A stretch of 64,000 nucleotides of DNA, taken from contig CAMLGF010000002.1 in NCBI GenBank assembly GCA_946479515.1, forward strand, positions 62,001-126,000, read 5' to 3'. A model generated the notes under the pieces. The model was not told the DNA's origin and did no database searches. It saw nothing but the letters and a program-made list of their open reading frames with translations. Both the position numbers and the translations under genes were made by a program. The stretch's first letter is position 1, and every line of letters begins with the position of its first letter. Positions 24,409 through 55,075 of the stretch are shown piece by piece. The DNA comes from an uncultured Pseudomonadota bacterium. GTDB taxonomy: Bacteria > Pseudomonadota > Gammaproteobacteria > Steroidobacterales > Steroidobacteraceae.

Positions 24409-24436
24409 GGGGGCGCACCTGCTCGGGTGCGTCCCC
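24409..24436. terminator. Strong hairpin between the receptor and halogenase genes
   Basis: GGGGGCGCACC at 24409-24419 pairs with GGTGCGTCCCC at 24426-24436 (11 bp, one G-T pair, six-base loop). It lies 33 bases after the receptor stop and is followed by GTTTCCTT. It probably ends the receptor transcript. Its distal arm is shared with the outer end of REP copy A, so element and terminator are interlocked. Confidence 0.6.
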
Positions 24437-24466
24437 GTTTCCTTGAAAACGAGGAATGTCCCCATT
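24429..24466 (-). repeat. REP element, copy A
   Basis: Read on the minus strand, this 38-base element agrees with the two copies flanking the RAYT gene at 36 of 38 positions; the two differences lie in the middle of the hairpin. It opens with AATGGGGACATTCCTC, whose first AA belongs to the TAA stop (24467-24465) of the halogenase-like gene. CCTCGTTTTC and GGAAACGGGG form the stem with G-T pairs and a two-base loop. Confidence 0.9.
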
Positions 24467-25952
24467 ACGGCGCGCGGCAGTTGTGCTCGATGAACTGCGC
24501 GTGCGTGGGCATGCGGGCGATGGCGCGATGCAATCCTTCGCGCAGTTCGCGCGCCTTCGATTCCAGTTCCGGCAGCGGCAAGGTCTCGGCCAGGGGATCC
24601 CAGTGCCGGGGCGTGACGTGCTGGCCGAGCATCACGGCGATCCAGCTCGAATCCGAGAACAGCTGGCCGTCGTGGCGCGCCACCTTGCCGCGCATGCGGA
24701 ACAGCTCCATGCGATGCGCCAGGCTGTCGGGCATCGGCAGCGAGCGGCAGGCGCGCCAGAACTCCTCGGGGCGTTGCTGTGCGACGTAGTGCAGGATGAT
24801 GAAGTCCCGGATCTGCTCGTACTCGGCGATGCTCAACCGGTTGAATTCCGCTTCCGCCGAAGGGTCGTAATCCGTCGAGACCGGCAGCAACGACAGGAAG
24901 CGGAAGACGGCGGCCTGAACCATGTGCAGGCTGGTGGACTCCAGCGGCTCGAGGAAGCCGCCCGCGAGGCCGAGCGCCACGCAGTTCCTGTGCCACAGCT
25001 TGCGACGGCGGCCAGTCTTGAAGCGCAGCAGGCGCGGTTCAGCCAGCGGCTTGCCGTCCAGGTTCTGCAGCAGCGTGGCGGCGGCTTCGTCATCGCCGAT
25101 GTGATCCGAGCAGTACACGTGCCCGTTGCCGGTACGGTGCTGCAGCGGAATGCGCCACTGCCATCCCGCCCGGTGTGCGGTGGACCGCGTGCAGGGAGCG
25201 AAATTGGCGGCGTTCTTTTCGCAGGGCACCGCCAGTGCCCGGTCCACGGGCAGCCAGTGCGACCAGTCTTCGAACCTGGTCTGCAAGGTCTTCTCGATGA
25301 GCAGGCCCTGGAAGCCGGAGCAGTCCAGCCAGAAATCGCCCGTGATCGAACAGCCGCCGGCCAGGCGTACGGCTTCGATGAATCCGCCCTCGCCATTGAG
25401 CGCGACGTCGACGACCCTGCCTTCGACGCGATTGACGCCACGGGCTTCGGCGTAGCGGCGCAGGAAGCTGGCGTAAAGGCCCGCATCGAAGTGATAGGCA
25501 TACGCCAGTTGCGGCGTGTCCGGCGGCATCTGGGGCAGCGGCGGCAGGAACCGCATCTGCGCCGCCGCGACTGCCGCGGGCGCGTATTCGCGCAGCGCAT
25601 GCGGATGTCCGTGGGCCGCGAGCCGCAGCCACAGCTGGTGGAAGGCGACGCCCTTGATGTTGACGCCGAACTCGCCGAACTGGTGGAAATAGCGGTGCCC
25701 GGCCGTGCCCCAGCCGAGAAAGTCGATTCCGAGCTTGAAGGTGGCCTGAGTGGCCTGGATGAAATCCCGCTCGTTGATGCCGAGCACCTTGTTGAAGAAC
25801 TGCAGCGGCGGAATGGTGGCCTCGCCGACGCCGACCGTGCCGATCTCCTCCGACTCGATCAACGTGATCCGCTGCGTGCCGTTGACCGCATGCGCGAGCG
25901 CGGCCGCGGTCATCCAGCCGGCGGAGCCGCCGCCGACGATTACGTAGTGCAT
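24465..25952 (-). CDS. Tryptophan-halogenase-family flavoprotein
   Basis: A 495-residue FAD-dependent protein. ATG25952 starts directly at the dinucleotide-binding motif (MHYVIVGGGSAGWMTAAALAH, residues 1-21), typical of the family. TVGVGEATIPPLQFF matches the family region near the catalytic Lys, and WQWRIPLQHR carries the W-x-W-x-I-P signature thought to suppress monooxygenase activity. GFLEPLESTSLH is the usual FAD-domain end motif. Genuine halogenases act on free Trp or other aromatics; many relatives sit beside TonB receptors in carbohydrate loci with unknown roles, as here. No flavin reductase is nearby. The stop codon is fused to REP copy A. Confidence 0.88.
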   Translation of the reverse strand: MHYVIVGGGSAGWMTAAALAHAVNGTQRITLIESEEIGTVGVGEATIPPLQFFNKVLGINERDFIQATQATFKLGIDFLGWGTAGHRYFHQFGEFGVNIKGVAFHQLWLRLAAHGHPHALREYAPAAVAAAQMRFLPPLPQMPPDTPQLAYAYHFDAGLYASFLRRYAEARGVNRVEGRVVDVALNGEGGFIEAVRLAGGCSITGDFWLDCSGFQGLLIEKTLQTRFEDWSHWLPVDRALAVPCEKNAANFAPCTRSTAHRAGWQWRIPLQHRTGNGHVYCSDHIGDDEAAATLLQNLDGKPLAEPRLLRFKTGRRRKLWHRNCVALGLAGGFLEPLESTSLHMVQAAVFRFLSLLPVSTDYDPSAEAEFNRLSIAEYEQIRDFIILHYVAQQRPEEFWRACRSLPMPDSLAHRMELFRMRGKVARHDGQLFSDSSWIAVMLGQHVTPRHWDPLAETLPLPELESKARELREGLHRAIARMPTHAQFIEHNCRAP

Positions 25953-26087
25953 CAACCCGAACCCCCATCCCGCGCCATGTCGATTGTGGACCACGGGGGC
26001 CGGCACTTCCACCGGAGGCCATGCATGCCGATGGAGAACCGCGTCGCGATCGGGTAGCGTCCTGCGACTGCTTCGCAGGAGGCGCAC

Positions 26088-26411
26088 GTGAAACGCTACG
26101 GTCAGATCCTGAAGCTCAAGCCCGAACATCGCGACGAATACGTGCGGCAGCATGCCGCCGTGTGGCCGGGCGTGCTGGCGCAGATCCGGCGCGCCAATAT
26201 CCGCAACTATTCCATCTATCTGCGCGACGACATCCTGTTCGCGTACTTCGAGTACGTGGGCGATGACTTCGCGGCGGACATGCGCGCCATGGCGGCGGAC
26301 CCCGAAACGCAGCGGTGGTGGGCGTTCATGGAGCCCATGCAGGCGAAATGGCCGTCCGCGACGGCCGAGGAATGGTGGTCGAACATGATCGAAGTGTTCC
26401 ATGCGGACTGA
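26088..26411 (+). CDS. L-rhamnose/L-fucose mutarotase family protein (DUF718)
   Basis: A 107-residue enzyme of the RhaM fold, which interconverts alpha and beta anomers of a deoxysugar. GTG26088 has AGGAGG five bases upstream. Family residues are in YVRQHAAVWPGVLAQI (His near position 22), NYSIYLRDDILFAYFEY and the tail WWAFMEPMQ. Because the next gene, overlapping by 11 bases, is an alpha-L-fucosidase, L-fucose is a more likely substrate here than rhamnose; the family is known to include both. Confidence 0.85.
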   Translation: MKRYGQILKLKPEHRDEYVRQHAAVWPGVLAQIRRANIRNYSIYLRDDILFAYFEYVGDDFAADMRAMAADPETQRWWAFMEPMQAKWPSATAEEWWSNMIEVFHAD

Positions 26412-27939
26412 CGGCTGGCGCCGGCGACTGTCGGTAGTTAGCCTGGCGATCGGGCTGGCGGGCGCCTCGGGCGCGGCGGCGGCCGCGCCGGCGCCGCGCT
26501 ACGCGCCCGACTGGAGTTCCATCGACAGCCGGCCGACGCCCTCCTGGTGGAGTGACGCGAAGTTCGGCATCTTCATTCACTGGGGCGTGTATTCGGTGCC
26601 GGCGTTCGCGCCCAAGGGCGAGTACGCGGAGTGGTACTGGGAACGCCTGGGCCGGCCGGGGAATCCCGCCTCGGCGCGCGACCAGCAGATCCGCCGCGAG
26701 ACGCGCGAATTCCATGAGCGCGTCTATGGCGGCGATTTCGGCTACCCGCAGTTCGCGTCGCAATTTCGCGCCGAGATGTTCGATGCTGGCAAATGGGCCG
26801 ACATCCTCGCGGCCTCCGGCGCCAGGTACGTGGTACTCGTGTCCAAGCACCACGATGGTTTCGCGCTCTGGCCGTCGCCGCAGGCGGACGCGAGCTGGGG
26901 ACGTCCCTGGAACGCGCTCGCCGTCGGGCCGAAGCGCGATCTGGTCGGCGAGCTCACGGCCGCGGTGCGCGCGCGCGGCCTCGAGGTGGGTTTCTACTAC
27001 TCTCTGTACGAGTGGTTCAATCCGCTGTGGCTGGCCGGTGACAAGGACGCCTACGTGCGACGCCATCTGTTTCCGCAGTTCAAGGACCTGGTGACGCGGT
27101 ACTCGCCCGCGGTGATCTTCGCGGATGGCGAGTGGGATCTGCCCTCGGAGCAGTGGCGCGCGCCGGAGTTGCTCGCCTGGCTGTACAACGAGAGCGCGGT
27201 CAAGGACCACGTCGTGGTCAATGACCGCTGGGGCGCCGAGAGCCGCCACCTGCACGGCGGGTACTACACCACCGAATATGGCGCCGGCTTGCCCGGCGCC
27301 ACGCATGCCTGGGAAGAGAATCGCGGCGTTGGCCACTCCTACGGTTTCAACCGCAACGAAGATCTCGGCGACTACGCCACGGGCCAGCGCCTGCTGCTGA
27401 CCTTGCTGGACACCGTGAGCCGCGGCGGCAATCTGCTGCTCAACATCGGTCCCACCGCCGACGGCCGTATTCCGGTGGTGATGCAGGAGCGTCTCGCCTA
27501 TCTGGGCGCATGGGTGCGGTACAACGGCGAGGCGGTGTACGGCACGCGCACCTTCCGCGAAGGGGCGCAATGGACCGCGGGCCGCCGGCAGGAGGTCGAT
27601 ACGTCGACCAACTACCGCGCCCGCTACGACGTGGAAAAACTCACGCTGCGCCCGGCCGCGGGCGATGCGCGCAAGGAAATCCTGTTCACGCGCAAGGGCG
27701 CCACACTTTACGCCATCCTGCCCATCTACCCGCGCGGCGAGCTCGCAATACGCGGTGTCCGCGCCGCGAAGGGTGCGCGCGTCAGCCTGCTGGGCTGGCC
27801 GCGTGATCGCATCGACTGGCGGCAGCGCGGCAATGACCTGGTGATCGCTGCGCCGCCGCTCGACGAAGTGATGCTGTCGCTGCCGTTCTCGGGCGCCTAC
27901 ACGTTCAGGATAGACGGCCTCGCGGCCGACGATCCGTGA
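26401..27939 (+). CDS. Secreted alpha-L-fucosidase, GH29
   Basis: A 512-residue retaining glycosidase that removes terminal alpha-L-fucose from glycans. A signal peptide occupies about residues 1-28. The (beta/alpha)8 domain shows FGIFIHWG (His60), VLVSKHHDGFALW (His150/151) and IFADGEWD with the likely nucleophile Asp242; the C-terminal 100 residues look like the beta-sandwich domain. The acid/base residue is not conserved in GH29 and cannot be placed by eye. Its ATG lies within the mutarotase gene, so the two are cotranslated: release of fucose and adjustment of its anomer. It converges with the following peptidase gene, two bases apart. Confidence 0.92.
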   Translation: MRTDGWRRRLSVVSLAIGLAGASGAAAAAPAPRYAPDWSSIDSRPTPSWWSDAKFGIFIHWGVYSVPAFAPKGEYAEWYWERLGRPGNPASARDQQIRRETREFHERVYGGDFGYPQFASQFRAEMFDAGKWADILAASGARYVVLVSKHHDGFALWPSPQADASWGRPWNALAVGPKRDLVGELTAAVRARGLEVGFYYSLYEWFNPLWLAGDKDAYVRRHLFPQFKDLVTRYSPAVIFADGEWDLPSEQWRAPELLAWLYNESAVKDHVVVNDRWGAESRHLHGGYYTTEYGAGLPGATHAWEENRGVGHSYGFNRNEDLGDYATGQRLLLTLLDTVSRGGNLLLNIGPTADGRIPVVMQERLAYLGAWVRYNGEAVYGTRTFREGAQWTAGRRQEVDTSTNYRARYDVEKLTLRPAAGDARKEILFTRKGATLYAILPIYPRGELAIRGVRAAKGARVSLLGWPRDRIDWRQRGNDLVIAAPPLDEVMLSLPFSGAYTFRIDGLAADDP

Positions 27940-27941
27940 AA

Positions 27942-30011
27942 TCAGCCTGCGCCGAGATTCGCCGAGAGGAATCCTTCGATTTGCTTCAGCAGGGTCACGC
28001 GGTCCGACTGGCGCTCGAGCTCATGATTTGCGCCCTTGATGACCACGAGGTCCACTTTCTTCTTCGCGCGGCGCAGTGCGATGGCCATTGCCTTGCTCTG
28101 ATCGGGTTGCACCTGCCAGTCTTTGGCGCCGTGGATGAGCAGGACCGGAATGTCGACGTGCGCCGCCTGCTTCACGGGTGAGTCCCGTTCGAGCTTGGCC
28201 GGATCGCCCCCGATCTGGTAGCGGCGAATCGCCTTGTCGCCGGTGACGATGCCGTGGTCGATCTGCATCTGCAGGTCGGCGATGCCGCCGATGCTGACTG
28301 CGCACCTGTAGACATCGCTGTTGCGCGCGGCGCCCAGCAGTGCGGCATACCCGCCGAATCCCCAACCCATGATGCAGACGCGCTTTGGATCGGCGATGCC
28401 CTGGGCGATCGCCCAGCGCGTGGCGTCATGAATGTCGGAATAGGTGATGCCACCCCAGTCCTGGTGCGCGACATTGCGCCAGTTCTGACCAAAGCCGGAC
28501 GAACCGCGATAGTTCATCTGCAACACGGCGTATCCGCGGCTCGCGAGGAAGGTGCGCAGGAACGAGAAGCTCCAGGAATCGCGCGCCAATGGGCCGTCGT
28601 GCGGCAGCACCACCAGCGGCAGGTTCTTCTTCTCCGCTCCGGTCGGCACCGTGAGATAGCCGGGGATGTCGGTGCCGTCGCTGGCCTTGTAGATGATGTT
28701 TGTCATCGTGCCGAGCGACCGGGTATCCAGCTCCGGGTACGCACTGCCGAGTTTCGACAGCTTGTCCTTGTCGCGGTCGTAGAGGAAGTACGTGCCCGCG
28801 TCGACGTCGCTGGAGGAGCGCACCACCAGGATCTTCAAGTCTTCGGTGCTGTCTACGATATCGTGCACGCGCCCCGGATACAGTCGCTCGAGCCTTTCGA
28901 TGAGCGCACGCAACCCCTCGTCCGCATACCATACGTACGGCCGTTCGACGTCGTAGCGCACGCCGAGCAGGCTGCGGTCGCCGCGCAGGATGGGCTCGCC
29001 GACGTCGACCAGCTTGTGATTGAAGAGCAGCTTGGGCTCGCTCTTGTCGGCAAGATCGATGGACCACAGCGCGTCCCGGCCGGCGTAGTTGCCGATGGCG
29101 TAGGCCGTGTTCGTGGACCGGGCCATGGCGATGGGACGAAGACGGTTCTCCTCGGTGAAGATCTGCGTCGCGTCCAGCTTGCGCCAGTCGTTCTCACCCT
29201 CCAGCCGCGCGTAATAGTTGGTCACCAGGCCTTCGAGGCCCCAGCCGAGGCGGGGATTGCCGCGACCGTCGGTGACGTATTCCTGGATCGGCGGATGATC
29301 GGGCATGCGCACGCCGCGATTGCCGCTGTAGATGTTGAGCACGAAGATGGAGTTGCAGCCGTTGCCGTCGTCGTCCATCTGTATGAGCACGCTCTCGTCT
29401 TCGCCGGGCGTGAAATCGATGACCTGGTCCTGGCGATCGGGCACGAAAGCCGAGGCGTAGGTGGCCACCGCCGTGCCGCTCGGCGCGTCGTTGTTCCAGG
29501 TGCCGCGATTCGAGTTGAAGCTCTTGTCGACCGTGGGCCCCTGGTTGATGTCGAAGTTGCGCATGCTCGTGGAAGCCACGAACAAGTTGCCCTGCCGCGC
29601 CGACTGGTCCAGCGCCTTGTAGGCGGAGCCGTCGACTTCCACCGAAAACATGCGCGTATAGGCAGGCTCCACGTACTTCTTGCCGATGATGTTGCCGTAC
29701 ACGCCGCACAACAGGCGCTTCTGGTTCGCGAAGCGGCACCAGCCGAGGTCGAACTTGCCGGGCACCGACATCGTGATCTTCTTGAACGGCGTGCCGGGCG
29801 CGGTGCGGTCGAAGGACATGAGTGCTGTCTCGTCGCCGACACCGGTGAGGAACGCCACGTAATGGCCGTCGGGCGAGATCGTCACGCCATGCATCTGTGG
29901 CCGGCGCGCGAAATTCTCGATGGCTGGCGGAGCGGCCAGGGAAGTACCAGCCAGGATTGCGCAAGAGACGAGAGAAGCCGTGGCGAAGGCCACACGGGCA
30001 GAGCAGTTCAT
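27942..30011 (-). CDS. S9 (prolyl oligopeptidase) family protein lacking the catalytic serine
   Basis: A 689-residue protein with a signal peptide (MNCSARVAFATASLVSCAILAGTSLAA). ATG30011 is preceded by GGGGGAC about eight bases upstream. Residues 35-430 are a WD/TolB-like propeller and 440-689 an alpha/beta-hydrolase domain (LPLVVLPHDGPLARDSWSF, YAVLQMNYRGSSGFG). The nucleophile elbow, normally G-x-S-x-G-G, reads MGWGFGGYAALLG, so position 551 is Gly (codon GGA). The other triad residues are in place: Asp631 in HGAKDWQVQ and His663 in ANHELE. A peptidase with this change should be inactive; a binding or scaffolding role, or a sequencing error, must be considered. Confidence 0.85.
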   Translation of the reverse strand: MNCSARVAFATASLVSCAILAGTSLAAPPAIENFARRPQMHGVTISPDGHYVAFLTGVGDETALMSFDRTAPGTPFKKITMSVPGKFDLGWCRFANQKRLLCGVYGNIIGKKYVEPAYTRMFSVEVDGSAYKALDQSARQGNLFVASTSMRNFDINQGPTVDKSFNSNRGTWNNDAPSGTAVATYASAFVPDRQDQVIDFTPGEDESVLIQMDDDGNGCNSIFVLNIYSGNRGVRMPDHPPIQEYVTDGRGNPRLGWGLEGLVTNYYARLEGENDWRKLDATQIFTEENRLRPIAMARSTNTAYAIGNYAGRDALWSIDLADKSEPKLLFNHKLVDVGEPILRGDRSLLGVRYDVERPYVWYADEGLRALIERLERLYPGRVHDIVDSTEDLKILVVRSSSDVDAGTYFLYDRDKDKLSKLGSAYPELDTRSLGTMTNIIYKASDGTDIPGYLTVPTGAEKKNLPLVVLPHDGPLARDSWSFSFLRTFLASRGYAVLQMNYRGSSGFGQNWRNVAHQDWGGITYSDIHDATRWAIAQGIADPKRVCIMGWGFGGYAALLGAARNSDVYRCAVSIGGIADLQMQIDHGIVTGDKAIRRYQIGGDPAKLERDSPVKQAAHVDIPVLLIHGAKDWQVQPDQSKAMAIALRRAKKKVDLVVIKGANHELERQSDRVTLLKQIEGFLSANLGAG

Positions 30012-34441: not shown

Positions 34442-35782
34442 ATGAAAGACCTCAGCAACGGTTCGATTCCGGGGCACATCGCCACGATGTCCATCACCAT
34501 GGCCATCGGCATCCTGGTGCAGACGCTGTATTTCTTCATCGACCTGTACTTCGTGTCGAAACTCGGCGACCACGCCATCGCCGGCGTGACCTCCGCCGGC
34601 AATCTGTGGTTCGTGGTGCTCGCGCTCACACAGATACTGAACGTGGGCACGGTCGCGCTGGTGTCGCATGCCGTGGGCGCGCAGCAGCGCGAACGCGCCA
34701 ACCTGGTGTTCAACCAGTCGCTGTTGTTGTCCGTGTACGTCGGCCTGTTCGTGATCGGCGGCGTGTATCTCGCCGCGCCCGTCTACATGCACACCGTGGG
34801 GGCCGACGAGGCGACGGCGCGCGCGGGCATCGAGTACCTGTACTGGTTCGCGCCCGGCCTCGGCCTGCAGTTCGCGATGATCGCCATGTTCGCCACGCTG
34901 CGCGGCACGGGCATCGTGAAGCCGACGATGATCCTGCAGATGGTCACGGTGTTCGTGAACGTGATGCTCGCGCCCGTGCTCATCGTCGGCTGGGGCACGG
35001 GCAGGCCCATGGGCACCGCGGGCGCGGGTCTCGCGAGCACGCTGTCGGTGATCGTCGGCGTGATCCTGAGCGCTTACTATTTTCACCGGCACGAGAAGTA
35101 TGTTTCCGTGCATCGCGAGCAGATGCGGCCGCGGTGGGTGGTCTGGGGCCAGCTGCTGCACATCGGGCTGCCGGTGGGCCTGGAGTTCTTCCTGATGTCG
35201 GTGGTGATGGCGGTCATCTACTGGGTGATCCGCGATTTCGGCGCGGCCGCGCAGGCGGGCTTTGGCGTGGGGCAGGGCATCATGCGCATCATCATGCTGC
35301 CGGCCATGGCCGTGGCGTTCGCGTCGGCGCCCATCGCCGGCCAGAACTTCGGCGCGCGCAAGCCCGAGCGTGTGCGCGAGACGTTCAAGTGGACGGTGGT
35401 CATCAGCATCGTGCTGATGCTGATGCTGACGGTGCTCTGTCAGTACGAGTCCGACGGCTTCATGCGCGTGTTCACCAACGAGGCGGCAGTGGTCGGCGTG
35501 GGTGCGCAGATGCTCATGATCAGCTCGTGGAATTTCGCGGCCAATGGCGTGATCTTCAGCTGCTCGTCGATGTTCCAGGGGCTGGGCAACACCTGGCCGA
35601 CCATTTTTTCCAGCGCCCTGCGGCTGGTGATCTTCGTCGTACCTGCGCTGTGGATGTCCAGGTTGCCCAGCTTCGAGCTGCACCATCTCTGGTACCTGTC
35701 CGTGTGCAGCATGTTCGTGCAGGCCATGGTGTCCTTCGGACTCGTGCGGCGCGAATTCAACCGCCGCCTGAACTTTGCTTAA
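34442..35782 (+). CDS. MATE-family efflux transporter
   Basis: A 446-residue inner-membrane antiporter with 12 predicted helices, expelling cationic drugs or metabolites in exchange for H+ or Na+. Family landmarks are the N-terminal ITMAIGILVQTLYFFIDLYFVSKLGDHAIAGV and mid-protein VAFASAPIAGQNFGARKPERV. ATG34442 begins 21 bases after the porin terminator. The TAA stop merges with the first bases of REP copy B. Confidence 0.92.
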   Translation: MKDLSNGSIPGHIATMSITMAIGILVQTLYFFIDLYFVSKLGDHAIAGVTSAGNLWFVVLALTQILNVGTVALVSHAVGAQQRERANLVFNQSLLLSVYVGLFVIGGVYLAAPVYMHTVGADEATARAGIEYLYWFAPGLGLQFAMIAMFATLRGTGIVKPTMILQMVTVFVNVMLAPVLIVGWGTGRPMGTAGAGLASTLSVIVGVILSAYYFHRHEKYVSVHREQMRPRWVVWGQLLHIGLPVGLEFFLMSVVMAVIYWVIRDFGAAAQAGFGVGQGIMRIIMLPAMAVAFASAPIAGQNFGARKPERVRETFKWTVVISIVLMLMLTVLCQYESDGFMRVFTNEAAVVGVGAQMLMISSWNFAANGVIFSCSSMFQGLGNTWPTIFSSALRLVIFVVPALWMSRLPSFELHHLWYLSVCSMFVQAMVSFGLVRREFNRRLNFA

Positions 35783-35818
35783 TGGGGACATTCCTCGTTT
35801 TCTAGAAAACGGGGACGC
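35781..35818 (+). repeat. REP element, copy B
   Basis: A 38-base element beginning at the MATE gene stop codon. It opens AATGGGGACATTCCTC, continues with the perfect 14-bp palindrome GTTTTCTAGAAAAC (35797-35810) and closes GGGGACGC. CCTCG and CGGGG extend the stem to 10 bp around a TA centre. It is identical over all 38 bases to copy C in the opposite orientation. The TAG in the palindrome centre is also the RAYT stop codon. Confidence 0.95.
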
Positions 35819-36485
35819 GCCTCGGCAGATACCTGCGCGGACGCCCGATCGGCGCGAGCGAGGCTTCGAGGTCGAGCGCCTGCGCCTGCGCACGAACCCA
35901 GTCGTGCGCGCCAAACGGACGCTGCCGGTTCACGCAGGTTCGGATCGCCGCCAACTCGGCCTCGGTCTGCGGCTCGTTCACGAGGTGTCGCCAGTAGCTG
36001 GGCAGCGCAACGGGCGCCTCCGCCAGGCACACCGGCGGCGAGCGCGAGCCGCGCCAGCTCAGACTGCCCCAACGCCAGTCTTCCGCGCGCTCCACCAGGT
36101 TGGCGCGCAGCGCATTCCTCTCCACATAGCGCAGGATCGTCAGCAGGTGGTGATCGCCCTGCGCGGGAAAAGCCTTGAACCGCCCCTGCCACATCCGGCC
36201 CGTGGTTGCGTACTTCGCGTGATGCCAGCGGACATGCGTCGTGAACACCCACTGCATCCATCGCGACAGATCGCCGGCCGCCGCGGGCCGCACCACCATG
36301 TGGACATGGTTTGGCATCAGGCACATCGCGAGTATGGGCAGTTCCAGCCGCTCTTGCGCGCGTGCGATCAGCGCCAGGAACTGGGCGTAATCGTCGGTAC
36401 CGTGGAAGATCCTTGCGCGCCGGTTCGCCCGATTGAGCACGTGGTAGCAGTAGCCGGGAATGATGGCGCGAGCGGTCCGGGGCAT
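35802..36485 (-). CDS. REP-associated tyrosine transposase (RAYT)
   Basis: A 227-residue Y1 HUH single-strand transposase. ATG36485 starts MPRTARAIIPGYCYHVLNRANRR, the usual family opening. The metal-binding HUH motif is MPNHVHMVV (His60, His62). The probable nucleophile is Tyr120 in LLTILRYVERNALRANLV, and EDWRWGSLSWR follows as in relatives. The last codons (Val-Pro-Val-Phe-stop) are read from REP copy B, the TAG coming from the palindrome centre. The family nicks and rejoins REP DNA as single strands; it is not known to mobilise its own gene often. Confidence 0.93.
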   Translation of the reverse strand: MPRTARAIIPGYCYHVLNRANRRARIFHGTDDYAQFLALIARAQERLELPILAMCLMPNHVHMVVRPAAAGDLSRWMQWVFTTHVRWHHAKYATTGRMWQGRFKAFPAQGDHHLLTILRYVERNALRANLVERAEDWRWGSLSWRGSRSPPVCLAEAPVALPSYWRHLVNEPQTEAELAAIRTCVNRQRPFGAHDWVRAQAQALDLEASLAPIGRPRRYLPRRVPVF

Positions 36486-36606
36486 GCGCGTCAGGGTAGT
36501 TGGGTGTGCCGATCGTCGGCACCCGGAAAGCTGCTCAGAGCACGCAGAAATGCGTTGCCTGGGCCCGCACTGGTTGCCGTGAGGATGGTCGCGGGAAAAA
36601 AGAGCC

Positions 36607-36644
36607 GCGTCCCCGTTTTCTAGAAAACGAGGAATGTCCCCATT
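36607..36644 (-). repeat. REP element, copy C
   Basis: The exact reverse complement of copy B (38 of 38 bases). Read on the minus strand it begins at the TAA stop (36645-36643) of the small membrane-protein gene and has the same GTTTTCTAGAAAAC core at 36615-36628. It lies 121 bases upstream of the RAYT start codon. Confidence 0.95.
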
Positions 36645-37011
36645 AAAGCAGGCCGTAGGTCGGGCCGAAGTCATGGCCGGTGACTCGGGCCGCGCGCTGC
36701 GTGAGTTCGACGTGATTGCGCAGAAACACCAGCAGCGTCAGCAGGCAGGCAATGGCGGCCAGCGATGCGGCGAGGCGCGAAGTGGCCTCGGAGGCCTTGC
36801 GCGCCAGCACGACGCAGATCAGTCCCAGCCCGAGGAACACGATGGCGAACACTCGGGTCGTGGACGCGGCCACTTCCCAGGTATCGGTGAGCGAAGCGCC
36901 GAGCTGCTGGTCGGTGAAGGGCGGGTGCGACCATTCATACAGGCCGAGCGCCAGCGCCAGCAGCGCGAAACCCAGCACCAGCCAGGGCAGCACACGCGCC
37001 AGCACCGGCAT
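36643..37011 (-). CDS. Small three-helix membrane protein
   Basis: A 122-residue protein with three hydrophobic segments (about 4-24, 51-70 and 80-97) and no motif I recognise. ATG37011 shares one base with the aminotransferase stop (TGATG), so translation is coupled to that gene; an upstream GTG at 37020 is a possible alternative. Its stop codon forms the start of REP copy C. Cotranscription with the aminotransferase does not by itself indicate a shared function. Confidence 0.7.
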   Translation of the reverse strand: MPVLARVLPWLVLGFALLALALGLYEWSHPPFTDQQLGASLTDTWEVAASTTRVFAIVFLGLGLICVVLARKASEATSRLAASLAAIACLLTLLVFLRNHVELTQRAARVTGHDFGPTYGLL

Positions 37012-38351
37012 CAGGCGCACTCCCGCAGTGCCTGCGACAGCACGCCGAACAGCTCATCCACGTGCTGCTGCTCGATGATGAGCGCTGGCGACAGTGCAAT
37101 CGTGTCGCCGGTGGTGCGGATCAGCAGTCCCCGCTCGAAGCACTGCAGATAGACGTCGAAGGCCCGCTTGCCGGGCGCGCCGGGCGCCGGTTCGAGCTCG
37201 ATACCGGCCACCAGTCCGTAATTGCGGATGTCGATGACGTGCGGCAGCCCGCGCAAGGCATGCACCGCATTCTCGAAGGCCGGCGCCAGGGTCTTCGCGC
37301 GCGTGAGCAGGCCTTCGCGCTGGTAGATGTCCAATGCCGCGAGTCCGGCCGCGCAGGCGATGGGATGCGCCGAGTACGTGTAGCCATGGAACAGCTCGAT
37401 GCCGGCGGGCCCCTGCATGAAGGTCTCGTAGATCGACTTCGACACCAGCACGGCGCCCATGGGCACGGCGCCATTGGTCAGCCCCTTGGCGCAGGTGATG
37501 ATGTCGGGAACGACGCCGAACTCCTGGGCGGCGAATGCCGATCCGGTGCGACCGAATCCCGTGATCACCTCGTCGAAGATGAGCAGGATGCCGTGCCGAT
37601 CGCAGATGTCGCGCAGTCGCTGCAGGTAACCCACCGGCGGCAGCACCACGCCCGTGGAGCCCGCGAGCGGCTCGACGATGACGGCGGCAATGGTCGAGGC
37701 ATCGTGCAGCGCGACCAGCCGCTCGAGATCGCCGGCGAGTTCCGCGCCGTGCGCGGGCAGGCCGCGGGTGAACGCATTGCGCGCCGGATCGTGCGTGTGC
37801 CGCAGGTGATCCACGCCCGGAATCATGGCCGTGGGCCAGGCCTTGCGATTGGCCACCATGCCGCCCACGCTGATGCCGCCGAAGCCCACGCCGTGATATC
37901 CGCGCTCGCGACCTAACAACCTGACGCGTGCCGCGTCGCCGCGTGCCCGGTGATAGGCCAGTGCGATCTTGAGCGCGGTGTCCACCGACTCCGAACCCGA
38001 GTTGGTGAAGAACACGTGCTCCAGCGCGGGTCGCGCCGCTGCCGCCGGCTGTGGCTTCGCGATCCGCACCAGCGCGTCGGCCAGCTGGAACGCGGCCGGA
38101 TGCCCCATCTGGAATGGTGGGGCGTAGTCCATCTGCGCGAGCTGCCGCGACACCGCCTCGGTGATCTCCGGGCGGCCATGACCGGCGTTCACGCACCACA
38201 GTCCGGCCACGCCATCCAGCACTTTGCGGCCTTCCGGGGTCTCGTAGTACATGCCCGACGCGCGCGCGAGCATGCGCGGCTTGTCCTTGAACTGGCGGTT
38301 CGCGGTGAACGGCATCCAGTAAGCGTCGAGCGGGATGGCTGGGTCTGGCAT
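37011..38351 (-). CDS. Class III aminotransferase (putrescine or omega-amino acid:pyruvate type)
   Basis: A 446-residue PLP enzyme beginning MPDPAIPLDAYWMPFTANRQFK, characteristic of omega-amino acid-pyruvate and polyamine aminotransferases. GLWCVNAGHGRPEI, FFTNSGSESVDTALKIA, LIFDEVITGFGRTGS and the PLP lysine in DIITCAKGLTNGAVPMGAV are all present. It diverges from a PuuR-like regulator and PuuC-like dehydrogenase only 42 bases away. Together with the puuA/B/D genes at 60-64 kb this suggests a polyamine or GABA/beta-alanine amino-group acceptor role. Distinguishing SpuC-like putrescine:pyruvate from beta-alanine:pyruvate activity needs phylogeny. Confidence 0.88.
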   Translation of the reverse strand: MPDPAIPLDAYWMPFTANRQFKDKPRMLARASGMYYETPEGRKVLDGVAGLWCVNAGHGRPEITEAVSRQLAQMDYAPPFQMGHPAAFQLADALVRIAKPQPAAAARPALEHVFFTNSGSESVDTALKIALAYHRARGDAARVRLLGRERGYHGVGFGGISVGGMVANRKAWPTAMIPGVDHLRHTHDPARNAFTRGLPAHGAELAGDLERLVALHDASTIAAVIVEPLAGSTGVVLPPVGYLQRLRDICDRHGILLIFDEVITGFGRTGSAFAAQEFGVVPDIITCAKGLTNGAVPMGAVLVSKSIYETFMQGPAGIELFHGYTYSAHPIACAAGLAALDIYQREGLLTRAKTLAPAFENAVHALRGLPHVIDIRNYGLVAGIELEPAPGAPGKRAFDVYLQCFERGLLIRTTGDTIALSPALIIEQQHVDELFGVLSQALRECA

Positions 38352-49827: not shown

Positions 49828-50778
49828 ATGAAATTCGCCATCCTTGGCGCGGGAGCGCTCGGCACGATACTCGGCGCGCACCTGTCGCGGGCCGGTCACG
49901 AGGTCGTGATGCTCGCGCGCGGCGAGCGCGCCCGCACCCTGCAACGCCAGGGGCTGGTGCTGAACGGCCTTTCCGACATCAAGGCGCGGCCGCAGGTGCT
50001 GGACGAGCCGTCCAGGCTGATCGAAACCGGCACGCTCATCATCGCCACCAAGGCCATCGACACCGCGCAGGCGCTCGAATCGCTGAAGCACGTCAAGCTG
50101 GAAAACGCCTTGTCGGTGCAGAACGGCGTGCTCAAGAACGAGCTGCTGGCCGCGGTGTTCGGTTATTCGCGCGTCATCGGCGCCATGGCGGATTTCTCGG
50201 GGGAGCTGCTGGCCAACGGCGAGGTCAAGTTCACGCGCAACGTCTGCCTGCATCTCGGCGAGGAGAAGGGCGGCACCAGCGCGCGCGTGGCAGCGCTGGC
50301 CGCGGCCATCGACGACGCCGGCGTGCGCTGCACGCAGGCATCCAACATACGTACGCGCGAGTGGTCGAAGTTCGCCGGCTGGATCGCCCAGTTCCCGCTG
50401 GCCGTGCTGACGCGCCAGATCACCTGGAAATTCCTCATGGACGAGCGCAGCGCGGGGGTGATCGTGCGCATCGTGCGCGAGGCGGCGCAGCTCGCTGCCG
50501 CGATGAAAGTGGAGCTGGTGGACATGCCGCCCCTGCCGGTGCCCAGCATCGCGCATGCCAGCGACGCCGATGCCATCGCCATCGTGCGCGACATCGGCGA
50601 GAAATTCCGGCAGAACTCGCCCGAGCACCGCATGTCCGCGCAGCAGGACGTCCTGCGCGGCAGCCGCCTGGAGAGCGAGGAGACCCTCGGCTACGCCTTG
50701 CGCAAGTCGCGCGAGCTCGGTGTTCCCATGCCGACGCTCGATACCTGCTACCGCATCCTCACGGTCGCCCATCCATGA
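49828..50778 (+). CDS. Ketopantoate reductase family (PanE/ApbA) protein
   Basis: A 316-residue NADPH-dependent reductase. ATG49828 begins at the Rossmann motif MKFAILGAGALGTILGAHL. The C-terminal domain has TREWSKFAGWIAQFPLAVLT, where the catalytic Lys of PanE is kept, but the usual following Asn is Trp/Ala, and EHRMSAQQDVLRGSRLESE instead of the standard S-M-QD stretch is only partly conserved. It may be a paralogue acting on another 2-oxo acid rather than true ketopantoate reductase. Its stop is followed at once by REP copy D and overlaps the next ATG. Confidence 0.83.
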   Translation: MKFAILGAGALGTILGAHLSRAGHEVVMLARGERARTLQRQGLVLNGLSDIKARPQVLDEPSRLIETGTLIIATKAIDTAQALESLKHVKLENALSVQNGVLKNELLAAVFGYSRVIGAMADFSGELLANGEVKFTRNVCLHLGEEKGGTSARVAALAAAIDDAGVRCTQASNIRTREWSKFAGWIAQFPLAVLTRQITWKFLMDERSAGVIVRIVREAAQLAAAMKVELVDMPPLPVPSIAHASDADAIAIVRDIGEKFRQNSPEHRMSAQQDVLRGSRLESEETLGYALRKSRELGVPMPTLDTCYRILTVAHP

Positions 50779-51626
50779 AATGGGGACATTCCTCATTTGC
50801 TAGCAAAAGGGGTCAGGCCTGGTGGGCCGTGATGGGATGGTGCTGGATGGCGGCCGCCCACGCCGCCGAGCCCGCCACGGTGCAGTTCTTCGACGATTTC
50901 GAGTCACAACCCGCAGGCCAGCTTCCCGGTGCGCCCTGGAAGGAAGAGACCTACAAGTCCGGCGCGGTCATCCGCATCGACGGCACGCATGCCCACAGCG
51001 GCCGACAGGCCCTGCACGTGTTCACGCCGCGCGGCGCACAGTACCGGCGCGGCTATGTCGCCATCCATCTCGGCGGACCGCTGCCCGCGCTGCAGGCCGC
51101 CCTGTACGGCCGCGCCATGGTCTGGCTCGACGACGCCCCGGTGTCGCTGACGCGCGAACCGGTCCACTGGACGCTGCTGCAGGGCGAAGGCCGCTCCGCC
51201 GATGACCGCTACAACGCCATCTACCGCCTGGGCGTGGAGCGGCAGCAGGGCACCCAGCTCATGGCCAACTACGAGACCACGCCGCCGCTGCGCACCGACT
51301 GCAAACAGCAGTCGCGGCGCACGCTGCCGCTGCGTCGCTGGGCCTGCGTCGAGTGGCACATGGACGTGGCCACGCAGGAGATGGAATTCTGGCTGGACGG
51401 CAAGCCCGTCACGCACGTGATCCGGCGCGCCGCCGCCGACCACGCCTGCCGCGGCGACGACCTGCAGGGCGAATGGCGTGCGCCGCCGAAATTCGACAGC
51501 CTGTACATCGGTTTCGAACGGTACGCGGACTCCGCCAACGATCAGAACCTGTGGATAGACGACGTGGCGCTGTCGCGCGCGCGCATCGGCTGTCCTGGCA
51601 CGAACCAGAAGGGACCAACGAGATGA
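50775..51626 (+). CDS. Secreted Cip1-like beta-sandwich protein; N-terminus read from a REP
   Basis: A 283-residue protein if started at ATG50775, which overlaps the PanE-like stop (ATGA). That start gives MKWGHSSFASKRGQAWWAVM and a workable signal peptide ending at AAAHA before AEPATVQFFDDFE; residues 2-14 are encoded by REP copy D. GTG50829 or ATG50832 would leave a signal without a basic head. The mature protein begins FDDFESQPAGQLPGAPW and contains HSGRQALHVFTPRG and an ending LYIGFERYADSANDQNLWIDDVALS, resembling Cip1-like and polysaccharide-lyase-like jelly rolls that bind glycans. Cys residues (C-K, WACVEW, HACRG, IGCPG) may form disulphides. It overlaps the next gene by four bases. 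Confidence 0.7.
   Translation: MKWGHSSFASKRGQAWWAVMGWCWMAAAHAAEPATVQFFDDFESQPAGQLPGAPWKEETYKSGAVIRIDGTHAHSGRQALHVFTPRGAQYRRGYVAIHLGGPLPALQAALYGRAMVWLDDAPVSLTREPVHWTLLQGEGRSADDRYNAIYRLGVERQQGTQLMANYETTPPLRTDCKQQSRRTLPLRRWACVEWHMDVATQEMEFWLDGKPVTHVIRRAAADHACRGDDLQGEWRAPPKFDSLYIGFERYADSANDQNLWIDDVALSRARIGCPGTNQKGPTR
50779..50816 (+). repeat. REP element, copy D
   Basis: Identical to the consensus over the first 16 bases (AATGGGGACATTCCTC) and 31 of 38 overall. The palindrome reads ATTTGCTAGCAAAA instead of GTTTTCTAGAAAAC, with a paired T-A to G-C exchange that keeps the stem. It starts right after the TGA of the PanE-like gene. It also lies inside the reading frame of the next gene, encoding roughly its residues 2-14. 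Confidence 0.88.
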
Positions 51627-52963
51627 AGCAGATGAAGTTCAGAACCGCGGCGCTGTCCGCCCTTGCGGCTTTCGTGCTCGGCGCGGCGCTGCTCGCGCCG
51701 GCCTTCTCCCAGGGTCAGCCGCCGGCGAATGCCACGGCGGCGCCCGCCGACGCCGCCGCGCCGCTGCCGCCCGTCATCGACCCGGCGATCATCGACGCGG
51801 CCCTCGCAGGCATGGTCGAGGACCAGCGGCTCATCGGCGTTTCCGCGCTCGTGTACCAGCACGACCGGGAAGCGTACTTCGGGGCCTTCGGCCTCGCGGA
51901 CCGCGAGAACCACAAGCCCATGACCCGCGACACGGTGGTGCAGATATTCTCCATGACCAAGCCCATCGTGGGCGTGGCGCTCATGCAGATGTACGAGCGC
52001 GGCAAGTTCAAGCTCGACGATCCGCTGTCGAACTACCTGCCGGAGTTCGCGGACGTGACGGTGTACGCCGGCGAGGACGCCAATGGCCAGCCGAAGTTCG
52101 AGCCGCCGAAGCGGCCGATCCTGGTGCGCGACATCCTGCGACACACGGCGGGTTTCATCGGCGGGGCCGACGACTCGCCCGTGGGCCGGCTGTATCGCGA
52201 CGCCGACGTGCGTGGCGGCTACAACAATCCGCTGCCGGTGGTGTCGCAGAAGCTCGCCCGCGTGCCGCTGCTGTACCAGCCCGGCACGCGCTGGCTGTAC
52301 TCCGATGCGGTCGACGTCCAGGCCGCGCTCACGCAGAAACTGTCGGGCGTGCCCTTCGACAAATATCTCGAGCTGCACATCTTCCGGCCGCTGGGCATGA
52401 GCTCGGTGCGTTACACCATCCTGCCCACCGACCCGGACCGTCCGCAGCTCGCCGCGATGTACACGCGCAACGACGACGGCACGTTCACGCGCCAGGCCGA
52501 CGAGGAGGCTTACAAGTTCAACAGCGCGAACTGGCCTTACAAGCCCGGCAGTTTCGGACTGGTCGCCACCATCGACGATTACATGAAGTTCGCACGCATG
52601 CTCCAGGGCGGCGGCAAGCTCGGCCGCGCGCGCATCCTCAAGCCCGAGACCGTGAAGCTCATGGCCACCGACGCCATGCCGAAAGAGGTGACCGACAAGT
52701 CGTGGCTGCCGAGCAAGGGCCAGGTGGGCTTCGGCATCGACTTCGCGGTTCGCGTCGCGCCGCCCAAGGACGCCAGCGAGTCCTCGGGCCAGGTGGGCGA
52801 GTTCTTCTGGGATGGCGCCGCCACCACGCTGTTCTGGGTGGATCCGAAGAACGAGATCACCGCGGTGCTGTTCACGCAGTTCCGTCCCTTCGACAGGATC
52901 AAGCTGCACAAGACCTTCCGCGACGCCGTGTATCACAACCTGCCGGAGGCATTGGCCAGGTGA
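51623..52963 (+). CDS. Serine hydrolase of the beta-lactamase (class C-like) family
   Basis: A 446-residue exported hydrolase. ATG51623 overlaps the previous stop (ATGA); a signal peptide runs to APAFSQ. The catalytic Ser-x-x-Lys is SMTK in VVQIFSMTKPIVG, and the Tyr motif is WLYSDAVDVQAAL (Y-S-D in place of Y-x-N). A late GEFFWDGAATTLFW provides the third element (W-D-G rather than K-T-G). This pattern fits esterases and D-amino peptidases of the EstB/LpqK type rather than antibiotic-resistance enzymes. It is joined to the next gene by a GTGA overlap. Confidence 0.88.
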   Translation: MKQMKFRTAALSALAAFVLGAALLAPAFSQGQPPANATAAPADAAAPLPPVIDPAIIDAALAGMVEDQRLIGVSALVYQHDREAYFGAFGLADRENHKPMTRDTVVQIFSMTKPIVGVALMQMYERGKFKLDDPLSNYLPEFADVTVYAGEDANGQPKFEPPKRPILVRDILRHTAGFIGGADDSPVGRLYRDADVRGGYNNPLPVVSQKLARVPLLYQPGTRWLYSDAVDVQAALTQKLSGVPFDKYLELHIFRPLGMSSVRYTILPTDPDRPQLAAMYTRNDDGTFTRQADEEAYKFNSANWPYKPGSFGLVATIDDYMKFARMLQGGGKLGRARILKPETVKLMATDAMPKEVTDKSWLPSKGQVGFGIDFAVRVAPPKDASESSGQVGEFFWDGAATTLFWVDPKNEITAVLFTQFRPFDRIKLHKTFRDAVYHNLPEALAR

Positions 52964-54003
52964 CCCGGAACCTCGGCTTCGGATTCATCGGCGCCGGCGC
53001 GATCGCGCACTTCCATGCGCGGGCGGTGGCCGTCTCGCGCGGCGGCGTCGCGCTCGGCGTGGTCAGCCGCTCGCGGGCGACGGCAGAGAAATTCGCGGCC
53101 GAGCATGGCCTGAGCTTCGCAGGCGACGACGTCGACGCCTTGCTGCAGCAGCCGGGCATCGATGCCGTGTGCATCACCACGCCGTCGGCGCTGCATCTCG
53201 AGCCCGCACTCGCGGCCATCCGCGCCGGCAAGCACCTCATGATCGAGAAGCCCCTCGATGCCACGGTCGAAGGCACGGACCGCATCCTGCGTGAAGCCGC
53301 GCAGGCCGGCGTGCGCGTGGGCTCGATTTTCCAGGCGCGATTCGGCGACGCTGCGCGTCGGGTGAAGGCCGCGCTCGACGCCGGCCGCTTCGGCCGGCTG
53401 GCGCTGGCGAGCTGCTACGTGAAGTGGCACCGCGCGCCGGAGTACTACACGGGTTGGAAGGGCAGACTCGCCGAGGATGGCGGTGGCGTCATCATCAACC
53501 AGGCCATCCACGGCGTCGACCTGCTGCAATGGTTCGCCGGCATGCCCGAGGAAGTATTCGCGTGGTCGACGCAGCGCGTGCACGCGATCGAATCCGAAGA
53601 CACCTGTGTCGCCGCGCTGAAATTCGCCAGCGGCGCGCTCGGCACCATCGAAGGCACTACGGCGGCCTGGCCGGGCTGGTCGCGACGCATCGAGATCTGC
53701 GGTGAGCACGGCTCGGCGGTTATGGAAGACGACGACATCGCGCGCTGGGACTTCCGCGAGGCGTGGCCCGAGGATGCGCAGATTCGTGCAATGCGCGAGA
53801 GCGCGGCCATGGGTTCGGGTGCCGCCGCGCCCATGGACATCAAGATCGAAGGGCATCAGCGGCAGATCCAGGATTTCATCGACGGCATCAACGAGCAGCG
53901 GCCGTTCTTCATCGAAGGCGCGGAGGCGCGCAAGGCGGTGGCGCTGGTGCGCGCCATCTACGAATCGGCGGCCAGCGGCCGGGTGGTGCGCCCGGCCGCC
54001 TGA
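52960..54003 (+). CDS. Gfo/Idh/MocA-family sugar-type dehydrogenase
   Basis: A 347-residue NAD(P)-dependent oxidoreductase. GTG52960 overlaps the hydrolase stop. Residues 5-30 are the Rossmann fold (GFGFIGAGAIAHFHARAV), and HLMIEKPLDA has the E-K-P catalytic-lysine motif. DGGGVIINQAIHGVDLLQWFAG supplies the conserved C-domain His-x-x-D. Members oxidise sugars, inositols or sugar acids. The four-gene chain from 49.8 kb suggests processing of one extracellular compound, but this is a guess. Confidence 0.9.
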   Translation: MTRNLGFGFIGAGAIAHFHARAVAVSRGGVALGVVSRSRATAEKFAAEHGLSFAGDDVDALLQQPGIDAVCITTPSALHLEPALAAIRAGKHLMIEKPLDATVEGTDRILREAAQAGVRVGSIFQARFGDAARRVKAALDAGRFGRLALASCYVKWHRAPEYYTGWKGRLAEDGGGVIINQAIHGVDLLQWFAGMPEEVFAWSTQRVHAIESEDTCVAALKFASGALGTIEGTTAAWPGWSRRIEICGEHGSAVMEDDDIARWDFREAWPEDAQIRAMRESAAMGSGAAAPMDIKIEGHQRQIQDFIDGINEQRPFFIEGAEARKAVALVRAIYESAASGRVVRPAA

Positions 54004-54061
54004 GCATCCTCGCCTGGCGCCGCCCGGATGCCGGGTGCATGCGCGCGGCGCGCAATCGGAG

Positions 54062-55000
54062 CTACTGGCAGATCGTGGTCAACTGCTCGCGCGGCTTGCG
54101 CGGCGCGTTCGCGGGCCAGGGTATGTGCCTGGCCTCCATGCCAAGCTCGATCAGCGTGCCGCCGTTCGGCGAGGCCACGTCGGGGTCGTAGTCGTAGGCG
54201 GCGTCGGACTGCGCCTCTTCCAGCGTGACGATCTCGAATCCTTCCGCCCGCAGTAGTTCGAAGAGGTCGGGCAGGATGTGCGCGCTGAACGAGCCCAGGT
54301 GCAACAGCGCCACGTGGTGGATGTCGCGGCCGAACACCTTGCGCGAGTACTCGACCTGGAAGCGGATGAAGTCGCGCGCCGTGGTCAGATAACTCTCGCG
54401 CAGCCATCGCAGGGCGGCCTCGTCGTGCTGCATCCAGCAGCGGGCGTGCGCGCTGTTCCAGAGATAGTCTTCCCAGTCGAGCGTGGTCTGCGCGATGCGA
54501 TAGCCGTTGGCCTGCAGGAAGGCGCGCACCGCGCGGCGCTTCTCCAGCGTGTCGCCCTCGTGCAGGAAGGGGTAGCGGAACCAGCGCCAGTCGTGGCCGG
54601 CGGGTTTGCCGCCCGGGGGGATCAGCAGTTCGAGGGTGGGTTCATTGCGCAGGATCTGGCGCTGGAAATCCTCGACGCTGTTCTGGGTGAGATTCAGATG
54701 GTCGTAGGTGTGGCTGCCGAGGGGGTGGCCGCCGTTCACCCAGATCTGCAGGGCGAGCGCCCCGTCCGGGTTGCGCTCGAGCTTCAGCGCGTTCACGAAA
54801 CCGTAGGAGGGTGGGATGCGGTGCTCGCGCAGCACGGCGATGGTGTCGCGCGCGAAGTCGGAGTCCTTCTTGCCCTCCGGCAGCGTCCCGTTTCGCGGCA
54901 GGTCGTCGAAGGTGAGCGCGACCTTCAGCGTGGGTCCGGCGGCCATGGCGGCGCTCGCCGCGAAAACCGTGGCGGCCAGCGCCAGCAGGGCATTTTTCAT
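54062..55000 (-). CDS. Secreted polysaccharide deacetylase family protein
   Basis: A 312-residue exported protein (signal MKNALLALAATVFAASAAMA). The NodB homology domain shows motif 1 VALTFDDLP with the metal and base Asp residues, and motif 2 PLGSHTYDHLNLT (H-x-x-x-H type). RYPFLHEGDTL replaces the usual motif 3 R-x-P-Y-G. WMQHDEAAL and ALLHLGSFSAHIL are late family blocks. It probably removes acetyl groups from cell-wall or exported glycans. It converges with the dehydrogenase gene. Confidence 0.88.
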   Translation of the reverse strand: MKNALLALAATVFAASAAMAAGPTLKVALTFDDLPRNGTLPEGKKDSDFARDTIAVLREHRIPPSYGFVNALKLERNPDGALALQIWVNGGHPLGSHTYDHLNLTQNSVEDFQRQILRNEPTLELLIPPGGKPAGHDWRWFRYPFLHEGDTLEKRRAVRAFLQANGYRIAQTTLDWEDYLWNSAHARCWMQHDEAALRWLRESYLTTARDFIRFQVEYSRKVFGRDIHHVALLHLGSFSAHILPDLFELLRAEGFEIVTLEEAQSDAAYDYDPDVASPNGGTLIELGMEARHIPWPANAPRKPREQLTTICQ

Positions 55001-55053
55001 TCAGGAGTCGCCGGTGAAGGGGCGGTGCGAGCGTGGCGCGCGAATGTGACAAC

Positions 55054-55075
55054 AATAATCAGGCATGTCCCCATT
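55054..55075 (-). repeat. REP half-element, copy E
   Basis: On the minus strand the bases after the Dps stop (TGA at 55078-55076) read AATGGGGACATGCCTGATTA. The first 11 match the REP consensus exactly, CCT is kept, and the second hairpin arm is absent. I read it as a decayed or partial REP. Confidence 0.6.

What the first reader, a model, noticed from the sequence alone, without database searches (positions are those of the whole stretch)
24429..55075. Every REP copy begins at a stop codon and points with the upstream gene
Five copies of one REP family (24429-24466, 35781-35818, 36607-36644, 50779-50816 and a half copy at 55054-55075) share AATGGGGACAT. In all five the element starts at the stop codon of the preceding gene and is read in that gene's direction. 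In three cases the AA of TAA is the element's own first AA; in two it follows TGA directly. No copy is in an ordinary gap or the reverse orientation. This suggests target choice at stop codons or a role in 3'-end processing. Insertion beside stops of unrelated genes (halogenase, MATE, membrane protein, PanE, Dps) makes shared ancestry of the flanks unlikely.
Basis: seen in the sequence. Interest (0 to 1): 0.82.

Follow-up and report, generated by a model that had tools for sequence, protein, structure and literature searches.

The report
Transposon ends lodged in stop codons
The repeats are the ends of a small family of jumping DNA elements, one of which carries its own transposase, and they tend to settle in or beside the stop codons of genes, where their own first letters rebuild the stop so that the gene stays intact.

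Summary
In detail: all five copies of AATGGGGACAT lie where stated and each touches a stop codon. The label "REP" misses the key fact: copies 35781(+) and 36644(-) are the terminal inverted repeats of one 864-bp element carrying a RAYT/TIRYT-type Y1 transposase. For a two-ended element, direction "with the gene" is automatic; only solo halves inform. No genome is held for the window, so I tested relatives. Elements touch a stop (-2..0 bp) in 22 of 52 (G016), 5 of 21 (G063) and 7 of 23 (G001+G002), against 1.2, 0.6 and 0.6 expected. Orthologues stop at the same residue in 16 of 19 comparisons: stops are native, the element splits T|RR and its own AA restores TAA. The preference is not a law: most of the relatives' copies do not touch a stop. 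Repeats that supply stop codons are already published. Apparently new, within a limited library: the T| phase, orthologue-checked stop restoration in a TIRYT family, and flanks that are mirror copies. Target choice versus selective survival remains open.

The parts
35781..36644 (-). Complete 864-bp RAYT/TIRYT element lying between convergent genes (MATE transporter on the left, DUF350-like small protein on the right); both neighbours' TAA stops use the element's AA
35781..35823 (+). Left terminal inverted repeat; its tip completes the TAA of the MATE gene (34442-35782)
   Evidence: 45-nt inverted pair 35779-35823 / 36602-36646, 98% complementary; stop register
36602..36644 (-). Right terminal inverted repeat; its tip completes the TAA of the small membrane-protein gene (36643-37020, minus)
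35802..36485 (-). Transposase gene, 227 aa, Y1_Tnp domain with HUH motif and conserved tyrosine; its own stop TAG lies inside the left repeat
   Evidence: Pfam PF01797 E 2.7e-16, 1.6e-16 for the 227-aa form; NCBIfam REP_Tyr_transpos 67.7 bits, cut-off 80; alignment; ORF and sequence
24429..24466 (-). Solo half; its AA completes the TAA of the tryptophan-halogenase-like gene (24465-26402, minus)
50779..50816 (+). Solo half directly after the native TGA of the ketopantoate-reductase-like (PanE) gene ending at 50778
   Evidence: native TGA in G001 and G016
55054..55075 (-). Partial solo half (AATGGGGACATGCC..) directly after the native TGA of the Dps/ferritin-like gene (starts at 55076 on the plus strand, read minus)
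   Evidence: native TGA in G001, G002 and G016

Best explanation
The repeats are the terminal inverted repeats, and solo halves, of a small transposon family moved by a RAYT/TIRYT-type single-strand (Y1, HUH) transposase; 35781-36644 is a copy that carries the gene. Insertions collect at gene 3' ends, with a peak inside the stop codon after its first T (T|RR), in some cases at the centre of overlapping or abutting convergent stops (TT|AA in the window, CT|AG and TGA|TCA in relatives). The element's tip (AAT.. here, AAA to AAAAA in G016) supplies AA, so each neighbour regains an in-frame TAA and the protein is unchanged. Shown: element structure, transposase domain, enrichment at stops, native stops in orthologues, phase bias. 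Inferred: that the peak reflects insertion preference as well as survival of harmless insertions; mobility itself; and that the hairpins add some transcription termination that helps retention.
For: Inverted repeats around a Y1 transposase. Stop contact 22 of 52, 5 of 21, 7 of 23, 4 of 4 against 1.22, 0.56, 0.59, 0.10 expected. Start-facing ends at 0-3 bp: 0 of 37, one more overlaps a start. In codirectional gaps nearer the upstream stop than the next start: 17 of 20, 7 of 8, 10 of 14, 2 of 2. Same stop residue in 16 of 19 orthologue comparisons, orthologue stops TAG 9, TGA 5, TAA 2, where G016 has TAA in 9 of those 10 genes. Empty sites TGA|TCA and CTAG read in relatives. T before the A-run in 24 of 27 contact ends against 21 of 73 other ends in G016.
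Against: 30 of 52, 16 of 21 and 16 of 23 elements do not touch a stop. The within-gap test is not significant in G063 (2 of 12, 1.12 expected, P 0.30). G001's MITEs of 93-98 bp with genes called on both sides (L066, L076, L078) lie 27 to 521 bp from gene edges. Joined flanks form a stop in only 17 of 32 T|AA ends, about what flank symmetry alone would give. The transposase misses the NCBIfam cut-off. No movement was observed; the gene finder is my own; the genomes are related, so counts are not fully independent.
Confidence: 0.6

Rival explanations
1. Selection alone: elements insert anywhere, but in a genome that is about 90% coding only insertions outside coding sequence and away from promoters survive, and an A-rich tip makes insertion in the stop codon harmless.
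For: Dense genomes (coding 93% in the window; 89% in G016 and G063). Divergent gaps hold 2 of 52, 0 of 21 and 0 of 23 elements. Published reasoning of this kind for pneumococcal repeats (passages).
Against: In gaps of 15 bp or more contact still exceeds uniform placement in G016 (8 of 30, 2.61 expected, P 0.0018) and G001+G002 (5 of 18, 0.64, P 0.00025), though not in G063. All phases of the stop would be harmless, yet T| holds 24 of 27. In long codirectional gaps the element often sits within 11 bp of the stop, e.g. 9 of 765, 4 of 268, 0 of 141 bp in G016.
Confidence: 0.25
2. Functional retention: the palindromes act as bidirectional transcription terminators or 3'-end stabilisers and are kept where that helps, just after stops and between convergent genes.
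For: G016 copies folded as near-perfect hairpins with A-tract before and U-tract after, -49.6, -69.8 and -195.6 kcal/mol for three copies; convergent gaps hold 30 of 52 and 13 of 21 elements, against 49 of 373 and 21 of 152 gaps without an element.
Against: A terminator would work as well 5-20 bp after the stop, so it does not explain the T| phase. The window's halves have no U-tract and fold weakly (-12 to -16 kcal/mol for the three taken without flanks). No RNA data, and the terminator scan was not run.
Confidence: 0.1
3. Truncation: elements land inside the 3' part of genes and bring a new stop, so every element seems to begin at a stop codon.
For: T|AA in frame is an immediate stop. At L092:13943-14273 the joined flanks give no stop on either strand. 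Some genes read into the element (L121, L130, L135 in G016, L154 in G063, L084 in G001).
Against: Orthologues end at the same residue in 16 of 19 comparisons and at the window's PanE and Dps sites; TGA|AATGGGG cannot arise this way.
Confidence: 0.04

Closest known systems
TIRtrons / TIRYT: tyrosine transposases flanked by long terminal inverted repeats (Di Nocera et al. 2013, PMC3733652, abstract and passages seen; Quentin et al. 2018, PMC6006769, passages seen)
   Same: RAYT-like Y1 gene between TIRs, TIR motif close to GGGGWSAS, dispersed single and paired TIR repeats.
   Different: The motif here is GGGGACAT, off at the last position; no C-terminal HTH found by Pfam, although most TIRYTs are placed in a subclass with HTH. 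The passages seen do not report a stop-codon register for TIRs.
GTAG REPs and REPINs (PMC3733652, PMC2817692, PMC3116915, passages seen)
   Same: Short palindromic repeats and inverted doublets tied to RAYT genes; convergent REPs lie under 20 bp from both gene ends; GTAG termini often provide a TAG stop.
   Different: The tip is AATGGGGACATT, not GTAG/GGAG; the stop made is TAA, from the element's AA after the T of the stop.
Pneumococcal BOX elements (Croucher et al. 2011, PMC3049150, passages seen)
   Same: In 36 of 58 overlaps the repeat encodes the stop codon at the extreme 3' end of a gene, without strong evidence of truncation; enrichment between convergent genes.
   Different: Unrelated sequence; no RAYT pairing (recalled).
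IS elements that target REP palindromes (Tobes and Pareja 2006, PMC1525189, passages seen)
   Same: Insertion at the symmetry axis of palindromes between convergent genes.
   Different: Those are other IS families that target REPs; here the element itself is the palindrome and native stops are the site.

Membership tests
RAYT/TIRYT transposase | Y1 transposase (Pfam Y1_Tnp) domain | tested here: met
   PF01797 E 2.7e-16, 60.2 bits, cut-off 23
RAYT/TIRYT transposase | HUH motif and catalytic tyrosine | tested here: met
   NHxH and the tyrosine are present in all 14 aligned sequences, one of them partial; that these are the catalytic residues is recalled
RAYT (NCBIfam NF047646) | Score above the curated cut-off of 80 bits | tested here: not met
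   67.7 bits for the window protein, 75.5 for the G001 copy
TIRtron | Gene bounded by terminal inverted repeats | tested here: met
   Arms of 41-45 nt at 98-100% in the window; inverted pairs around 4 of 5 genes and 10 of 12 loci
TIRtron | TIR motif GGGGWSAS | tested here: inconclusive
   GGGGACAT matches 7 of 8 positions (sequence; motif)
TIRYT subclass 2.1 | C-terminal HTH extension | tested here: not met
   No second Pfam family up to E 10; HMMER filters drop most weak matches
GTAG REP | GTAG or GGAG head at one end | tested here: not met
   Tip is AATGGGGACATT
MITE | Short, no coding capacity, terminal inverted repeats | tested here: met
   For copies in relatives, 93-98 bp and 314-331 bp, not for the window copies
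MITE of DDE type | Target-site duplication | tested here: inconclusive
   AA/TT tips make a short duplication ambiguous at the window element; by eye L072 and L065 show none
Bidirectional intrinsic terminator | Stem with A-tract before and U-tract after, ending transcription | tested here: inconclusive
   Sequence and fold fit the three G016 copies folded, not the window halves; termination itself not testable here
Active transposon | Observed movement or excision | not testable with these tools
   Only occupied and empty sites in related species were compared

The most novel reading that the evidence does not exclude
A single-strand transposase family aims at translation stop codons (T|RR, and above all the dyads formed by overlapping convergent stops) and rebuilds both stops; the palindrome it leaves then spreads by template switching, so that two unrelated convergent genes come to share the same last codons (L140: both end IEGN*, L143: both end RRRQ*).
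Probability: 0.25. Interest if true: 0.8.

Novelty: new variant of a known kind. Interest (0 to 1): 0.55.

Why it matters
It is a countable case of mobile DNA that is nearly invisible to proteins because it lands in a stop codon and rebuilds it, and it makes two usually merged questions separable: where such repeats are tolerated and where they insert. If target choice is real, single-strand transposases can be steered to gene ends; if the mirror flanks are real conversions, palindromes rewrite the last codons of convergent genes. Both can be tested in laboratory strains.

Tried and rejected
Target-site duplication (TTAA or TA) was considered because AA/TT tips make it indistinguishable at the window element; set aside by eye, since L072 and L065 do not fit. 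Insertion into ready-made terminator hairpins was considered for the mirror flanks; at L116 the mirror arm is absent from the empty G001 site, and at L140 the mirrored codons are native on one side only, so spreading of the palindrome fits better. Five loci whose mirror flanks looked like older elements or were unclear (L120, L138, L142, L144, L146) were left out. The joined-flank stop test (17 of 32) was dropped as evidence because flank symmetry alone gives about half. A literature search by sequence string listed only papers that looked unrelated (30 of 664 listed). Structure prediction, the protein homologue search and the terminator scan were not run.

Selection of rows. G016: the tool listed 100 of 173 ends; the 40 stretches were drawn from that list plus the second RAYT site; 55 clusters were printed (my count) and 52 used, the 3 left out lying inside genes or at an edge. 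G063: 20 stretches were chosen from the capped list; other listed places of the same repeat (e.g. C87, C101, C118, C136) were not fetched. G001: all 24 sites, G002: all 10 copies; copies without a called gene on both sides, such as those at contig ends, fall out, which used a loosened pattern. Gaps were delimited with my own gene finder. Orthologues: 15 of 27 contact genes were sent; 20 of 24 hits outside G016 had loci and were read; 1 was cut off by a contig end, leaving 19. One search used 20 of the 24 distinct halves printed (the 55075 half was not among them); their first 11 bases agree by construction of the pattern.
Full report
What is there. AATGGGGACAT occurs five times in the window (5 found, 0.36 expected). 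Copies 35781(+) and 36644(-) are inverted arms, 45 nt at 98% complementarity, bounding 864 bp that hold a 227-aa Y1 transposase on the minus strand at 35802-36485 (PF01797 E 2.7e-16; best NCBIfam model REP_Tyr_transpos at 67.7 bits, below its cut-off of 80). The transposase's own stop is the TAG inside the left arm (sequence). So two of the five "REPs" are the ends of one transposon and the other three (24466, 50779, 55075) are solo halves. The left arm folds as a stem-loop, CCTCGTTTTC-TAGA-GAAAACGGGG, behind the tip AATGGGGACATT.

Relatives. No genome is held for the window. G001 has 27 exact copies of the 14-base tip and G002 10; G001 carries the element with a transposase 74% identical. G016, G001, G002 and G053 were returned as one genus. 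The window's sites 2 to 4 find matches lying within about 16 kb of one another in G016 and in G002, so the window's organism is probably close to that genus; site 1 gave no usable orthologue. Of 12 related RAYT loci in the family, 10 show inverted repeats around the gene, several of them at gene ends. G016 has 173 TIR ends of two related sequences; of the 49 pairs measured, 44 are 36-161 bp apart.

Is the stop register above chance? I measured the distance from each tip to the stop of a gene facing it. Contact (-2 to 0 bp) was seen in 22 of 52 elements in G016 (1.22 expected under uniform intergenic placement, P 2e-22), 5 of 21 in G063 (0.56, P 0.00019), 7 of 23 in G001+G002 (0.59, P 1.2e-6) and 4 of 4 in the window (0.10). 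Gene-start-facing ends at 0-3 bp: 0 of 23, 0 of 8, 0 of 6; one more in G016 overlaps a start. In codirectional gaps the element is nearer the upstream stop than the next start in 17 of 20, 7 of 8 and 10 of 14. Restricted to element-free gaps of 15 bp or more, and asking only where in the gap the element lies, contact is 8 of 30 (2.61 expected, P 0.0018) in G016 and 5 of 18 (0.64, P 0.00025) in G001+G002, but 2 of 12 (1.12, P 0.30) in G063. Against the finding as worded: 30 of 52, 16 of 21 and 16 of 23 elements do not touch a stop, and three G001 MITEs of 93-98 bp (L066, L076, L078) lie 27 to 521 bp from gene edges.

Native stops or truncations? At the window's Dps site the TGA lies at the same place in G001, G002 and G016; at PanE it does so in G016 and G001, and G001 carries a different GGGGACAG element, in the other orientation, at that very stop. 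At the MATE/DUF350-like junction G001 has a same-family element of about 300 bp where the window has the transposase copy, which may be an old shared insertion or a second one. For G016, 15 of 27 contact genes were searched in the genus; 12 had readable orthologues, and 16 of 19 comparisons (10 of 12 genes) stop at the same residue, with stops TAG 9, TGA 5, TAA 2, where G016 has TAA in 9 of those 10 genes; the other two genes differ by 1 and 3 residues. Two empty sites were read directly: TGA|TCA for L116 (G001) and CTAG, both stops overlapping, for L140 (G002). So in the cases checked insertion mostly does not truncate; it splits or abuts the native stop, and the element's AA makes TAA.

Phase. 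In G016 the base before the A-run is T in 24 of 27 contact ends against 21 of 73 other ends; TAA makes up 24 of the 27 contact stops but 21% of all called stops. With an A-rich tip, insertion after T, after TR or after TRR would all be harmless, so the T| excess (P 3e-9 against one third; 0.00018 against 0.55, a rate I reckoned by hand from stop usage to allow for unseen TA| and TAA| cases) points beyond pure selection. Against this, joined flanks form a stop in only 17 of 32 T|AA ends over all genomes, about what the symmetry of the flanks alone gives; among codirectional T| ends 4 of 6 fit a clean split and L126 and L131 do not.

Mirror flanks. In G016 the two flanks of an element match each other, read outward, beyond the TIR: 16 of 49 pairs score 6 or more, which re-paired flanks do in 0.17% of cases; in G063 1 of 20. 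Leaving out five loci that looked nested in older elements or were unclear (40 pairs left), the match falls from 72% at the first base to near background by about base 6, with scattered later excess (bases 7, 8, 10 and 14). At L140 the rhodanese-like gene ends WEAEHRPIEGN* in G016 but WEAAKRPVERPADAPPSPN* in G002, while the opposite gene's EGN* end is native. Template switching inside a near-perfect palindrome (quasi-palindrome correction, recalled) would explain this; it is not shown.

Known or new. From the abstract and passages of PMC3733652: RAYT-like genes flanked by TIRs are called TIRYT/TIRtrons, many TIRs sharing GGGGWSAS; in two genomes most convergent REPs lie under 20 bp from both gene ends; GTAG termini often provide TAG stops. 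From passages of PMC3049150: BOX repeats encode the stop in 36 cases without strong evidence of truncation. From passages of PMC6006769: 20 of 26 TIRYTs fall in a subclass with C-terminal HTH, which I did not detect here. Of the papers listed (capped lists; passages of eight papers seen), none that I looked into reports a T|RR insertion phase or orthologue-checked stop restoration for TIRs; the library lacks most subscription journals. I therefore rate it a new variant of a known kind.

How it most likely works. A single-strand transposase cuts and inserts a hairpin-ended element without clear target duplication (mechanism recalled from IS200/IS605). Insertions survive at gene ends; those inside a stop codon survive because the tip restores TAA on either strand; the T| phase suggests that the enzyme also prefers such sites. 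Whether the hairpins also end transcription is open.

Noticed in passing
window 24377-24466: The whole 88-90-bp gap between two convergent genes is filled by the solo half and further hairpins (-39.6 kcal/mol for the 90 bases), perhaps a decayed pair whose far end abuts the TAG of the other gene.
   Followed up: partly
window 35802-35804: The transposase's own stop codon TAG is the centre of the palindrome in its left terminal repeat, so the element also ends its own gene.
   Followed up: no
L140:6043-6117, L143:6009-6062, L116:5975-6024, L123:6044-6094 (G016): Flanks of palindromic elements are mirror copies of each other for 13-16 bp; at L140 the last codons of two unrelated convergent genes are the same, unlike the G002 orthologue.
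   Followed up: partly
L187 (G001), PanE stop: A different GGGGACAG element in the opposite orientation sits at the same PanE stop codon that the window's 50779 copy abuts.
   Followed up: partly
L082:4080-4396, L065:4006-4319, L092:13943-14273: Copies of 314-331 bp carry long internal sequence; part of the L082 interior also appears beside G001's 98-bp copies (L083, L085), as if elements carry or nest in other repeats.
   Followed up: no
window 16206-16331 and 17464-17589: Two 126-nt stretches 75% identical in neighbouring genes, as of paralogues.
   Followed up: no
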